The translations under genes were made by a program, and so were the position numbers. Under the pieces are notes generated by a model that saw only the letters and a program-made list of their open reading frames with translations, searched no databases and was not told the origin of the DNA. Shown piece by piece: positions 6,274-15,953 of a stretch of DNA of 34,727 bases; the stretch's first letter is position 1; every line of letters begins with the position of its first letter. The stretch is from Bacillota bacterium (GTDB taxonomy: Bacteria > Sysuimicrobiota > Sysuimicrobiia > Sysuimicrobiales > Segetimicrobiaceae), in the NCBI GenBank assembly GCA_021324255.1, contig JAJPJL010000137.1:1-34727 (forward strand), in the 5' to 3' direction.

Positions 6274-6317
6274 GGCCGGTGCGGCGCCGCCGAACGCCGG
6301 CGAACGCGTCACCGGCC
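6274..6317 (+). terminator. Long imperfect hairpin after the second coxC
   Basis: GGCCGGTG (6274-6281) pairs with CACCGGCC (6310-6317), and an inner CGGCG/CGCCG pairing is possible. It begins three bases after the coxC-like stop codon. There is no T run. The stretch 6281-6322 also resembles, more weakly, the start of the repeat found after potC (14649-14690), so it may be repeat-derived rather than a terminator. Confidence 0.3.
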
Positions 6318-6334
6318 GGGCGCCAGGGCAACAC

Positions 6335-6380
6335 CTTTGATGTTTGACGAGGGTGGATGAGCCGGCCGGATCCGCTCGGA
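6335..6380 (-). repeat. 46-bp repeat at the 5' end of the transposase gene, inverted match to 14805-14850
   Basis: From CTTTGATGT to GCTCGGA, 41 of 46 bases match the reverse complement of 14805-14850. The block supplies the first twelve codons of the transposase reading frame and its TTG/GTG start codons. After it the two loci diverge completely. This shows that the 5' end of the transposase gene is made of sequence that also exists apart from any transposase. Confidence 0.85.
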
Positions 6381-7552
6381 AGACGGTCACGGTACACGTC
6401 GACGTACCGGAAGGGGGCGAGACTCGCACGTATGGCACGACCACCACGGACCTGCTCGGGCTGGTGGAGTGGTTGCTGGCCTCCCGGGTGACCCATGTGG
6501 CGATGGAGAGTACCGGGGTGTATTGGAAGCCCCTGTACAATCTGCTCGAGGCTACGGGGCTCACGGTGTTTGTGGTCAACACCGCCCATATGAAAGCCGT
6601 CCCGGGCCGGAAGACCGACGTCCACGACGCCGTCTGGATCTGCGACCTGATGCAGCATGGCTTGCTCAAGCCCAGCTTCATTCCGTCCCGGCCCCAACGC
6701 GAGTTGCGGGAACTCATTCGGTACCGCATCTCCCTGATTCAGGAGCGAACAGAGGAAGCCAACCGGATCCAGAAGGTGCTGGAGGGCGGGAACATCAAGC
6801 TGGCCTCGGTCGTGTCGGAGATCCTGGGCAAGACCGGACGCCGCATCCTGACCGCCATTGTCGAAGGGACCAGCACGCCGGAAGAGCTGGCGGGCATGGC
6901 GGACAGCCGCGTGCGCGCGACGCGAGCAGAATTGGTCGAGGCCCTGCGAGGACGGCTGACCGACCACCAGGGTACGCTGCTCCGCATGCAATTGGACCAT
7001 GTCCGCTACCTTGATCAGCAGATTGCGGCCCTGGATACGGAGGTGGCCAAGCGGCTGACCCCTTTCGAACCGCAGCTCCGGCAACTGGACACGATCCCGG
7101 GCGTCAATGAGCGCACCGCGGAGAATATGGTTGCGGTCATCGGGACGGACATGACCCGCTTTCCCAACGCGGACCACTTGGCCTCGTGGGCGGGGATGTG
7201 CCCGGGGAGCAATGAGAGTGCCGGGAAACGGCGGTCGTCCCGCACGCGCAAAGGGAACCCGATCCTCCGCAGCACCCTCACGCAGGCGGGCCACGCGGCC
7301 GGACGCACGAAGAACACCTACCTCGGGGCCACGTACCGGCGAATCGCTGCGCGTCGAGGAAAGAAGAGAGCCGCTGTCGCTGTCGGGCGGAGCATTTTGG
7401 AGATCGCGTACTTCGTGTTGCGAGACGGTGTGGCGTACGAGGAATTGGGCGTCAACTACTACGACGAGCGCAAGAAGGATGCCGTGGTCCGCAACGCGGT
7501 CAAACGGCTGGAACGGCTGGGCTATCGGGTTGCGATTCAACCGGCAGCCTAA
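6344..7552 (+). CDS. IS110-family transposase, probably 5'-truncated or chimeric
   Basis: DNA recombinase with an N-terminal RuvC-like DEDD domain and a C-terminal transposase_20 domain carrying the catalytic serine. Seen: AMESTGVYWKPLYNLL with the Glu, VPGRKTDVHDAVWICDL with the two later Asp residues, LIQERTEEANRIQKVLE, the helix-hairpin-helix part LDTIPGVNERTAENM, and CPGSNESAGKRRSSRTRKGN with the serine motif; the C-terminus looks complete. The family's N-terminal CAG(I/L)DVHK, which holds the first catalytic Asp, is not present: the frame reads DEPAGSARKTVTVHVD. No ATG precedes the conserved part, only TTG (6344) or GTG (6353). The gene is therefore probably inactive, or a recombined derivative. 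The call of family is certain; activity is doubtful. Confidence 0.9.
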   Translation: MTRVDEPAGSARKTVTVHVDVPEGGETRTYGTTTTDLLGLVEWLLASRVTHVAMESTGVYWKPLYNLLEATGLTVFVVNTAHMKAVPGRKTDVHDAVWICDLMQHGLLKPSFIPSRPQRELRELIRYRISLIQERTEEANRIQKVLEGGNIKLASVVSEILGKTGRRILTAIVEGTSTPEELAGMADSRVRATRAELVEALRGRLTDHQGTLLRMQLDHVRYLDQQIAALDTEVAKRLTPFEPQLRQLDTIPGVNERTAENMVAVIGTDMTRFPNADHLASWAGMCPGSNESAGKRRSSRTRKGNPILRSTLTQAGHAAGRTKNTYLGATYRRIAARRGKKRAAVAVGRSILEIAYFVLRDGVAYEELGVNYYDERKKDAVVRNAVKRLERLGYRVAIQPAA

Positions 7553-7630
7553 CCTCCGCCGCCGCTGGGCAGAACGGCGTTTTTCAGGGGAGCGGGCGTC
7601 GAGGACCGGGTAGGAGCGAGGAGGACGGGC

Positions 7631-10463: not shown

Positions 10464-11624
10464 ATGAACATCGCCGATCTGCTCCGCCATCGTGAGATCC
10501 GGAGCCTGCTGCACCCGGACGTCACCGCGCGGCTGACCCGGCGCGAGCTGCTCGGGCGGCTGACGTCGCTCGGGATCGGGCTGGGCGCGGCCTCGACGCT
10601 GATCGGCGCGTCGAGCGACGGGTACCCGGCGTTCGCTCAGACCGGTCAGTTCAAGGGCCAGACCCTCGTCATCACCAGCTACGGCGGCACGTGGCAACAG
10701 TTTATGGAGGACGAGCACATCCCGCCGTTCGAGGCGCTCACGGGCGCGAAAGTCGAGCTGGCGGTCGGTCTCGCGAAGGACTGGTTTGCCAAGATGCAGG
10801 CCGCGGGCAAGCGGAATCCCCCATACGACGTCTTTGTGACCAACGAGACGTATCTGGCGCAACTGCGCATCGAGGGATTCTTCGCCCCGCTGCCGCAGGA
10901 CAAGCTGCCGAACCTCGCGTTCGTGCCGAAACCGCTCCGGCAGCCCCAGGACGTCGGCGTGCTCGGGCTCGTGGGCGCCCTCGGCATCACGTACCGGTCG
11001 GACAAGGTGCAGGACGCGCCCAAGTCGTGGATGGACCTCGCCAAATACGGCAACAAGTCGACGATCTTCACGATCGGCAACTCCGGCGAGCCGCAGCACG
11101 TGATGAAGATGGCGCAGATCCTCACCGGCAGCTACAAAAATTACAAACCCGCGGTGGACTGGATCGGCAAGAACCTGTGCGCCGCGCGCCAGGTCGACTT
11201 CAGCGGCACCGAGCAGACGATGCTGACCCAGGGGGAGACGTATGTCGGCCTGATCGACGCGCCGGACTGGGCGTTCCTCAAAGCCAGGAACCTCCCCGTG
11301 GAGTGGGTGCTCCCCAAGGAAGGATACTGCGGCATGTTCGAGCAGGACATGAACGTCACCGCCGGGAGCAAGGTCAAGGACCTCGCGTACGCGTTCATCA
11401 ACTACTGGCTCAGCCCGCCCGTGCAGCAGAAGTGGGCGGAGAAGTTCTACTGGACGCCCGCGAACAGCCACGTCCAGATCAGCCCCGACCTCGCGAAGCT
11501 GATCCCCGTCACGCAGAGCCAGCTCACGAGAATCCCGCGGTGGGACTACGTCTGGCTCAACAACTCGGGGGCGCGCGAGGCGATGACCGACGCCTGGAAC
11601 CACACGGTCACCGGCCACTGCTAA
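10464..11624 (+). CDS. potD: Spermidine/putrescine-type ABC transporter substrate-binding protein, Tat-like signal
   Basis: Extracytoplasmic binding protein of the PotD-like SBP_bac_8 group, 386 residues from the ATG at 10464 (ribosome site GTGGAGGG). The N-terminus has LTRRELLGRLTSLGIGLG, a twin-arginine export signal, then a hydrophobic stretch and an AFAQT cleavage region. The mature part begins LVITSYGGTWQQFMEDEHI (family strand with an S/T-Y-G-G start), with VTNETYLAQLRIEGF, GALGITYRSDKV and YVGLIDAPDWAFL typical of the fold. It is followed by ATPase and permease genes after a 235-base gap that holds a repeat. The true ligand (polyamine, opine, amino-acid derivative) is not decidable; the symbol names the family. 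Confidence 0.88.
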   Translation: MNIADLLRHREIRSLLHPDVTARLTRRELLGRLTSLGIGLGAASTLIGASSDGYPAFAQTGQFKGQTLVITSYGGTWQQFMEDEHIPPFEALTGAKVELAVGLAKDWFAKMQAAGKRNPPYDVFVTNETYLAQLRIEGFFAPLPQDKLPNLAFVPKPLRQPQDVGVLGLVGALGITYRSDKVQDAPKSWMDLAKYGNKSTIFTIGNSGEPQHVMKMAQILTGSYKNYKPAVDWIGKNLCAARQVDFSGTEQTMLTQGETYVGLIDAPDWAFLKARNLPVEWVLPKEGYCGMFEQDMNVTAGSKVKDLAYAFINYWLSPPVQQKWAEKFYWTPANSHVQISPDLAKLIPVTQSQLTRIPRWDYVWLNNSGAREAMTDAWNHTVTGHC

Positions 11625-11625
11625 T

Positions 11626-11803
11626 GCGTCGTTGCCGAACTCCGGCAAGGGGGGCGAGCCGGCCGGACCTGCCCTTCGCCGGGCCCACGGCGTGAGCCGG
11701 CACGCGGCCGACGCCTCCCCGATTCCGGGTTGTCGCTTTGTCCCCCGTGCAATCGAAAGGGCGGAGGCACACGTCCCCGCCGCGGGCGTCGAACGTCCGC
11801 ACC
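11626..11803. repeat. Intergenic repeat copy A, between potD-type and potA-type genes
   Basis: This block starts two bases after the binding-protein stop codon. Aligned by eye with 14651-14806 it is about 85% identical apart from one insertion of about 20 bases (roughly 11681-11701). Shared segments include CCGGCAAGGGG, CGAGCCGGCCGGA, CTGCCCTTCGC, GGGTTGTCGCTTTGTCC, GAGGCACACGT and CGCGGGCGTCGAACG. No gene-like frame is credible on either strand. Unlike copy B it lacks the last 46-base block. Confidence 0.85.
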
Positions 11804-11859
11804 GCCGGCGGACCGAGGACTCCCGCCGACGACGCATTAGGTAGCACGCGACAGCCGCG

Positions 11860-14641: not shown

Positions 14642-14650
14642 CGGCCTGGT

Positions 14651-14850
14651 GCGCCATCGCCGAACCCCGGCAAGGGGTCGAGCCGGCCGGATCTGCCCTT
14701 CGCTCCGCGGACCGACGCCTATCCGATTCTGGGTTGTCGCTTTGTCCGCCGCGCAAGCGAAAATGCAGAGGCACACGTGCGCACCGCGGGCGTCGAACGC
14801 CCGCTCCGAGCAGACCCGGCCGGCCCATCTACCCTCGTCATACATCAAAG
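14651..14850. repeat. Intergenic repeat copy B, after the potC-type gene
   Basis: Direct copy of the block at 11626-11803, so the two copies bracket the ATPase and both permease genes. Within it ACCCC-GGCAA-GGGGT (14664-14678) and GCGGGCG-TTCGA-CGCCCGC (14786-14804) can form hairpins. Its last 46 bases (14805-14850) recur inverted at 6335-6380, at the start of the IS110 transposase gene. It ends eight bases before the stop of the convergent dgt gene. An open frame on the minus strand is shared with copy A but has no family features. Confidence 0.85.
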
Positions 14851-14858
14851 ACGCTGCG

Positions 14859-15953
14859 CTAGAAGCTCCACGCCCGCGGCACGAAGAGCCGCTGCTGTGT
14901 CCGGATCGCGAACCGGTCGGTCATCCCGGCCAGGAAGTCGCACACGGTCCGGTGGATGGTCGCGCGCCCGTCGTCGAGCAGCCGCCGGGCGTCGGGACCG
15001 ATCTCCTCCGGATGCTCGACGTAGTAGCCGAAGAGCGTCTCGAGCAGCCGGCCGACGGCGACCACCTCGGCCCTCGCGGCCGGCCCCAAGTAGACCGTCG
15101 TGAACAGAAACTCCTTGAGCTCGTCGAGCGCGGTGCGGACCGCGTCGCTCATCCTCAGGCACGGCGCGCCGGCGGAGTGCGCCACGATGTCGCGCACCGT
15201 CGTGTCAACCCACCGGCCGCGCGTCTCGCCGAGGACCTCGCGGACGGACGCGGGAACGTCGCGCTCCCCGATGAGGCCGGCGCGGATCGCATCGTCCGTG
15301 TCGTGGTGAATATAGGCGACCCGATCCGCCACGCGCGCGAGCTGGCCCTCCACCGTTTCCGGCACCGCGTGGGGGAGGGCCTCGTCGAGTCCCGGCAACG
15401 CCGCCAGATCCGTGCGTCCCTTGGAGTGCCCCCTGATGCCGTCCCGCACCTCGTACGTGAGATTCAGGCCGTCCTCGTCGATCCCGTCGCGCGTGCGGCG
15501 CCGCTCGAGCACCTCGACGATGCGCAGACTCTGCCGGTCGTGCCGGAACCCGCCGTGCTCCGCCATCAGCCGGTCCAACGCTTCCTCCCCGGCATGGCCG
15601 AACGGCGGATGGCCCAAGTCGTGGGCCAGCACGATGGCCTCGGTCAGATCCTCGTTGATCCGGACGGCGCGGGCGATCGTGCGGGCGATCTGGGCGACCT
15701 CGAGCGTGTGCGTGAGCCGGGTACGGTAATGGTCGCCCTCCGGGGCGATGAACACCTGGGTCTTGTGCATCAGCCGGCGAAACGCCTTCGAGTGCACGAC
15801 CCGGTCGCGGTCGCGCTGGAACGCGGTGCGCACGTCGTCGGGGCCCTCGGGCCGCACCCGCCCTTTCGATCGCGCGCTCCGCGCCCCGTGCGGCGAGAGC
15901 ACACGGTCCTCCCACGCCTCGGTGATCTCGCGCGGCGTCACGGGCGCGCCCAT
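14859..15953 (-). CDS. dgt: Deoxyguanosinetriphosphate triphosphohydrolase-like protein (HD family)
   Basis: Metal-dependent hydrolase of the dGTPase family, cleaving dNTPs to nucleoside and triphosphate; about 364 residues. The HD-domain ligands are visible: RTRLTHTLEVAQIARTI with the first His, VLAHDLGHPPFGHAGEEALD with the HD pair, and RVAYIHHDTDDA with the last Asp. An N-terminal ERxV-like segment (FQRDRDRVVHSKAFRRLMHK) is typical. GTG at 15956 and ATG at 15953 are adjacent start choices behind GGGGAGG. It follows ppdK by about 35 bases on the same strand, an order known from Clostridia, where dnaG and sigA usually come next; they do not here. Confidence 0.93.
   Translation of the reverse strand: MGAPVTPREITEAWEDRVLSPHGARSARSKGRVRPEGPDDVRTAFQRDRDRVVHSKAFRRLMHKTQVFIAPEGDHYRTRLTHTLEVAQIARTIARAVRINEDLTEAIVLAHDLGHPPFGHAGEEALDRLMAEHGGFRHDRQSLRIVEVLERRRTRDGIDEDGLNLTYEVRDGIRGHSKGRTDLAALPGLDEALPHAVPETVEGQLARVADRVAYIHHDTDDAIRAGLIGERDVPASVREVLGETRGRWVDTTVRDIVAHSAGAPCLRMSDAVRTALDELKEFLFTTVYLGPAARAEVVAVGRLLETLFGYYVEHPEEIGPDARRLLDDGRATIHRTVCDFLAGMTDRFAIRTQQRLFVPRAWSF

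What the first reader, a model, noticed from the sequence alone, without database searches (positions are those of the whole stretch)
6335..6380. The IS110 transposase gene begins with sequence from the intergenic repeat family
A 46-base block at the start of the transposase frame is 41/46 identical to the reverse complement of 14805-14850, the end of repeat copy B, where no transposase exists. It provides the start codons and first twelve residues. Beyond GCTCGGA the two loci are unrelated. Either both loci descend from the same IS110 left end, or the element landed in, or recombined with, a repeat copy.
Basis: seen in the sequence. Interest (0 to 1): 0.6.

Follow-up and report, generated by a model that had tools for sequence, protein, structure and literature searches.

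The report
Truncated IS110 element inside a repeat
The start of this transposase gene is the left arm of a short mobile repeat that was already there: an IS110 element landed inside the repeat and later lost its own left end and first codons, so what remains is an inactive relic of a known kind of event.

Summary
The 46-base match is real (41/46 to copy B, 43/46 to the family consensus). The block belongs to a ~217-bp MITE-like repeat: ~50-bp imperfect terminal inverted repeats, 4-bp CTAG-type target duplications (identical at 10 of 14 complete copies), about ten near-full copies in this genome, and a clean empty site for copy B in a congener. No other complete copy holds a transposase. IS110 relatives lack the block: they begin ...YERCCGLDVHKK..., and the closest (same genus, 74% identical) begins MAGVRVVYERCAGCDVHK, then a group II intron, then the shared body.

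At the orthologous cox3-cox4 site one congener has neither repeat nor IS, another has the repeat without the IS, and the window has both. The IS right end is intact (...TTTTTCAGG-GGAG), and the next bases, CGGGCGTCGA, resume the repeat where the left junction (GCTC-GGA) leaves it. So an IS110 element inserted into a resident repeat at GCTC-GGAG-CGGGCG, then lost its left end and first ~12 codons, including the first catalytic Asp. The repeat now supplies start codons and twelve residues of a probably dead recombinase.

One oddity remains: the truncation falls within a few bases of the group II intron site in the congener.

The parts
6278..6320 (-). Degenerate arm of the same repeat family, in the opposite orientation to the block, just after the cox3 stop codon; older, shared with G001.
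   Evidence: Local alignment to the right arm of the consensus; 0.15% of random windows score as high. Homologous sequence in G001.
6323..6380 (+). Left arm (positions 1-58) of a MITE-like repeat; contains the 46-base block and supplies the TTG/GTG starts and twelve residues of the frame.
   Evidence: 50/58 to the consensus; a repeat copy at the orthologous site in G001.
6378..6380 (+). GGA, the remnant of the left copy of the GGAG insertion core, now joined to codon 13 of the recombinase.
   Evidence: Comparison with the repeat consensus (GCTCGGAGCGGGCG) and with intact relatives.
6380..7552 (+). 5'-truncated IS110 recombinase (PF01548 + PF02371); lacks the GLDVHK segment with the first Asp of the DEDD site. 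The whole open frame is 6344-7552.
   Evidence: Pfam, alignment with relatives, IS621 and ISCro4 matches.
7553..7592 (+). IS110 right non-coding end, ending TTTTTCAGG followed by the core GGAG (7589-7592).
   Evidence: Comparison of right ends; boundaries from multi-copy elements in Ktedonobacter and Leptolyngbya.
7593..7603 (+). CGGGCGTCGA(G), continuation of the repeat from position 59; the rest of the repeat's right half is lost.
   Evidence: Among 1245 GGAG-anchored 20-mers only true repeat copies and this site reach the score.
14646..14862 (-). Copy B of the repeat, full length, without transposase.
   Evidence: empty site in G001.
11621..11804 (-). Copy A of the repeat, partial and diverged.
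   Evidence: 77% to the consensus.

Best explanation
A MITE-like repeat inserted between cox3 and cox4 in a common ancestor of this genome and congener G001. Later, in this lineage, an IS110-family element integrated into that repeat at GCTC-GGAG-CGGGCG, leaving the repeat's left arm upstream and its right part downstream (shown by comparison). Afterwards the left non-coding end, which in the IS110 group carries the bridge RNA, and the first ~12 codons were lost, joining the left core remnant GGA to codon 13 (the absence is shown; deletion through one or a few shared bases is inferred). The repeat arm now supplies in-frame TTG/GTG start codons, so the frame is open, but the product lacks the first Asp of the DEDD site and the element lacks its guide RNA, so it should be unable to move. 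Most of the repeat's right half was also lost.
For: Repeat family defined: ends, arms, target duplications, clean empty site of copy B. Orthologous cox3-cox4 site: G002 empty, G001 repeat only, window repeat plus IS. IS relatives start YERCCGLDVHKK and lack the block; the closest congener has MAGVRVVYERCAGCDVHK and a normal left end. Right end boundary and resumption of the repeat after it. No left end sequence anywhere in G000 or G001. Loss of the first Asp (D11 of IS621 is essential, PMC11208158).
Against: The intact ancestral element is not preserved in this genome, so the deletion step is inferred. The resumed right arm is short (about 11 bases beyond the core, one gap). The left breakpoint coincides both with the IS insertion core and with the intron site of the congener, which a random deletion does not explain.
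Confidence: 0.87

Rival explanations
1. The block is the genuine left end of this IS110, and the repeat family consists of solo left ends or MITEs derived from it.
For: The block sits at the very start of the frame and is multi-copy.
Against: Relatives have GLDVHK and a conserved left end without the block. The repeat has two inverted arms and CTAG target duplications, which do not fit IS110. G001 has 48 repeat matches and no close IS; G002 has the IS and no repeat.
Confidence: 0.02
2. The truncation was caused by group II intron activity at the conserved GLDVHK codons: either the inserted IS carried an intron that was lost together with the 5' part, or a cut at the homing site was repaired by deletion up to the IS left boundary.
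For: The nearest relative has an intron between HK and KT, within a few bases of the breakpoint here; the other breakpoint is the insertion core itself.
Against: No related intron RT found in this genome; no intron sequence remains at the junction; a single coincidence noticed afterwards; a short-homology deletion is sufficient.
Confidence: 0.08
3. Assembly artefact: the junction joins a repeat read to an unrelated IS read.
For: The genome is in 142 contigs and the repeat is multi-copy.
Against: Both flanks are orthologous to one contiguous locus in G001, the repeat arm here has its own private differences, and the repeat resumes on the other side of the IS.
Confidence: 0.03

Closest known systems
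IS110-family elements inserted in REP sequences (IS621, ISPa11, ISPpu9, ISPpu10, ISRm19; PMC1525189, PMC11208160)
   Same: IS110 recombinase domains; insertion into a multi-copy intergenic palindromic repeat at a short core; no target duplication beyond the core.
   Different: Here the left end and N-terminus are gone, the element is single-copy, and the target is a ~217-bp MITE-like repeat rather than a REP; preference for this repeat cannot be judged from one insertion.
Bacterial MITEs with 4-bp CTAG-type (YTAR-like) duplications, as for IS5-group elements (target type from general knowledge)
   Same: Short multi-copy repeats with terminal inverted repeats and 4-bp CTAG-type duplications; a clean empty site.
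   Different: No autonomous partner was identified, and the arms were not matched to any catalogued IS.

Membership tests
IS110 family (functional element) | RuvC-like DEDD domain (PF01548) and Tnp domain (PF02371) | tested here: met
   E 8.5e-29 and 3.7e-21
IS110 family (functional element) | Complete DEDD active site | tested here: not met
   First Asp (GLDVHK) missing; E55, D92, D95 present
IS110 family (functional element) | Left non-coding end with bridge RNA | tested here: not met
   No left end upstream of the frame; no match to the congener's left end in G000. So it is a decayed descendant, not a working member
IS110 family (functional element) | Right end and core shared with relatives | tested here: met
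   TTTTTCAGG-GGAG, compare TTTTCGGA-GGAG in G002
MITE (the repeat) | Short, multi-copy, terminal inverted repeats | tested here: met
   ~217 bp, ~50-bp imperfect arms, hairpin z = -5.6
MITE (the repeat) | Target duplication and empty sites | tested here: met
   10 of 14 identical 4-bp flanks; copy B empty in G001
MITE (the repeat) | Autonomous IS with matching ends | tested here: inconclusive
   None seen among the hits in G000 and G001; no systematic search was made

The most novel reading that the evidence does not exclude
The IS110 gene was broken at a group II intron homing site: an intron, or its RNP, acting at the conserved GLDVHK codons repeatedly disables IS110 recombinases, and the window is the fossil of such an event (exon loss or abortive homing) inside a repeat.
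Probability: 0.07. Interest if true: 0.5.

Novelty: new member of a known kind. Interest (0 to 1): 0.22.

Why it matters
It documents a layered insertion (MITE first, then IS110 inside it) with the order fixed by congeners, and adds a MITE-like repeat to the known repeat targets of IS110 elements. For annotation, the frame at 6344-7552 should not be called an intact transposase: its first twelve residues are repeat sequence and it lacks a catalytic residue. If the coincidence with the intron site is more than chance, it would point to group II introns shaping IS110 decay.

Tried and rejected
Shared IS110 left end: rejected by intact left ends in relatives. Orphan left end elsewhere in the genome: none. 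Group II intron related to the congener's in this genome: none found. Other intact IS copies in the own genome: none, single copy. Closer intact relatives in the phylum: only G002. Viral contigs: only distant relatives, 47% identity or less. Rfam: no match in the locus around the junction. The first test of the right flank against the whole repeat was weak (7% of random windows reach it); anchored at the IS boundary it is strong. Comparison of copy A's site with congeners was not clean: G001 has other sequence there.

Full report
Observation. 6335-6380 and the reverse complement of 14805-14850 agree at 41 of 46 positions, and the block agrees with the family consensus at 43 of 46. The inverted pair extends to 56 bases at 84%. 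A search of the window's own genome (G000) returned ten further places, best E-value 1e-13. The open frame starts at TTG 6344 and its first twelve residues lie in the block.

The repeat. Searches with copy B and a consensus define a ~217-bp element, CTAGTGC...GCACTAG, with ~50-bp imperfect inverted arms that share GCCGGCCGGATCTGC. About ten near-full copies and many partial ones lie in this genome. G001 (same genus) gives 48 matches and G002 (same genus) none. Ten of 14 complete copies (from G000 and G001) have identical 4-bp flanks, mostly CTAG but also TTAG and GTAG, so the flank is a target duplication. Copy B is a clean insertion: G001 reads TGACGGC-CTAG-AAGCTCC and the window TGACGGC-[CTGGTGCG...GCTGCG]-CTAG-AAGCTCC. 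The consensus folds into a long hairpin (z = -5.6). This is a MITE-like repeat; its autonomous partner was not found.

The IS. The frame has both IS110 domains and resembles the IS621 and ISCro4 recombinases of known structure. It is single-copy in this genome. Homology to relatives starts at residue 11 or later in nearly all of the 79 loci fetched. Where the upstream frame was read, relatives continue as ...YERCCGLDVHKK..., whereas the window has MTRVDEPAGSAR. The lost segment holds the first Asp of the DEDD motif; E55, D92 and D95 remain. D11 of IS621 is essential for recombination (PMC11208158).

The closest relative, G002 C56, is 74% identical and also appeared to start at residue 12. Its upstream sequence is a group II intron (Rfam RF02005 at L109:51-283) with a reverse transcriptase. 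The first 141 bases of C56 are identical to the end of contig C5, and C5 carries the IS left end and MAGVRVVYERCAGCDVHK. So in G002 the gene has a normal N-terminus interrupted by an intron, and neither its left end nor its N-terminus contains the 46-base block.

Order of events. At the orthologous cox3-cox4 site G002 has 16 bases between the stop and start codons and no insertion; G001 (99% identical cox3 protein) has a degenerate arm and a short repeat copy but no IS; the window has the same flanks plus the IS. The repeat came first.

Insertion point. The right ends of relatives end in TTTTCAGG or similar followed by a short core, with the boundary fixed by a two-copy element (Leptolyngbya) and a three-copy element (Ktedonobacter). 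In the window this gives ...TTTTTCAGG-GGAG, with the core at 7589-7592. The next bases, CGGGCGTCGA, continue the repeat from position 59. Among 1245 GGAG-anchored 20-mers taken from the window and other loci, only true repeat copies and this site reach the score. The congener's IS is also flanked by GGAG on both sides: CACAAA-GGAG at the left and CGGA-GGAG-ATGAG at the right. The insertion site in the repeat was therefore GCTC-GGAG-CGGGCG. Upstream, GCTC-GGA is still present but is joined directly to codon 13.

Truncation. The left end and first ~12 codons are absent, and no sequence similar to the congener's left end exists elsewhere in the genome. A deletion from the left core to codon 13, using one or a few shared bases, is the simplest account; it is inferred. 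The IS-side breakpoint falls at the same codons (HK|KT) as the intron in G002. This may be chance (about 1% by a rough count, noticed after the fact), and no related intron RT was found here. I list it as unexplained rather than as a mechanism.

Function. Without a left end (and hence a bridge RNA, which lies in the left end in the IS110 group, PMC11208160) and without the first catalytic Asp, the element should be immobile. The frame stays open because the repeat arm happens to offer TTG/GTG starts in frame. Whether it is translated is unknown.

Known context. IS110 elements often target repetitive elements (PMC11208160), and REP targeting by IS621, ISPa11, ISPpu9 and ISPpu10 is documented (PMC1525189). 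The present case is a decayed member of that kind in a MITE-like target.

Noticed in passing
L109:1-1922 with L237 (G002 C56 and C5): A group II intron with its own reverse transcriptase interrupts an IS110 recombinase gene between the codons of GCDVHK and KTVVVHV in a congener, within a few bases of where the window's IS is truncated.
   Followed up: partly
L028, L033 (G000 C16 and C51): Some repeat copies carry a ~22-bp direct repeat (CTGGCTCACGCCGTAGGC) on both sides of the core, between core and arms; the C51 copy looks like a deletion between the two, leaving arm-repeat-arm.
   Followed up: partly
G000 C10:82178-82255 and C108:24380-24458: Very short (~80 bp) versions of the repeat consist of the two arms alone, with no core.
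   Followed up: no
6278-6320: A second, degenerate repeat arm in opposite orientation precedes the block, so the cox3-cox4 gap took up repeat sequence more than once before the IS arrived.
   Followed up: partly
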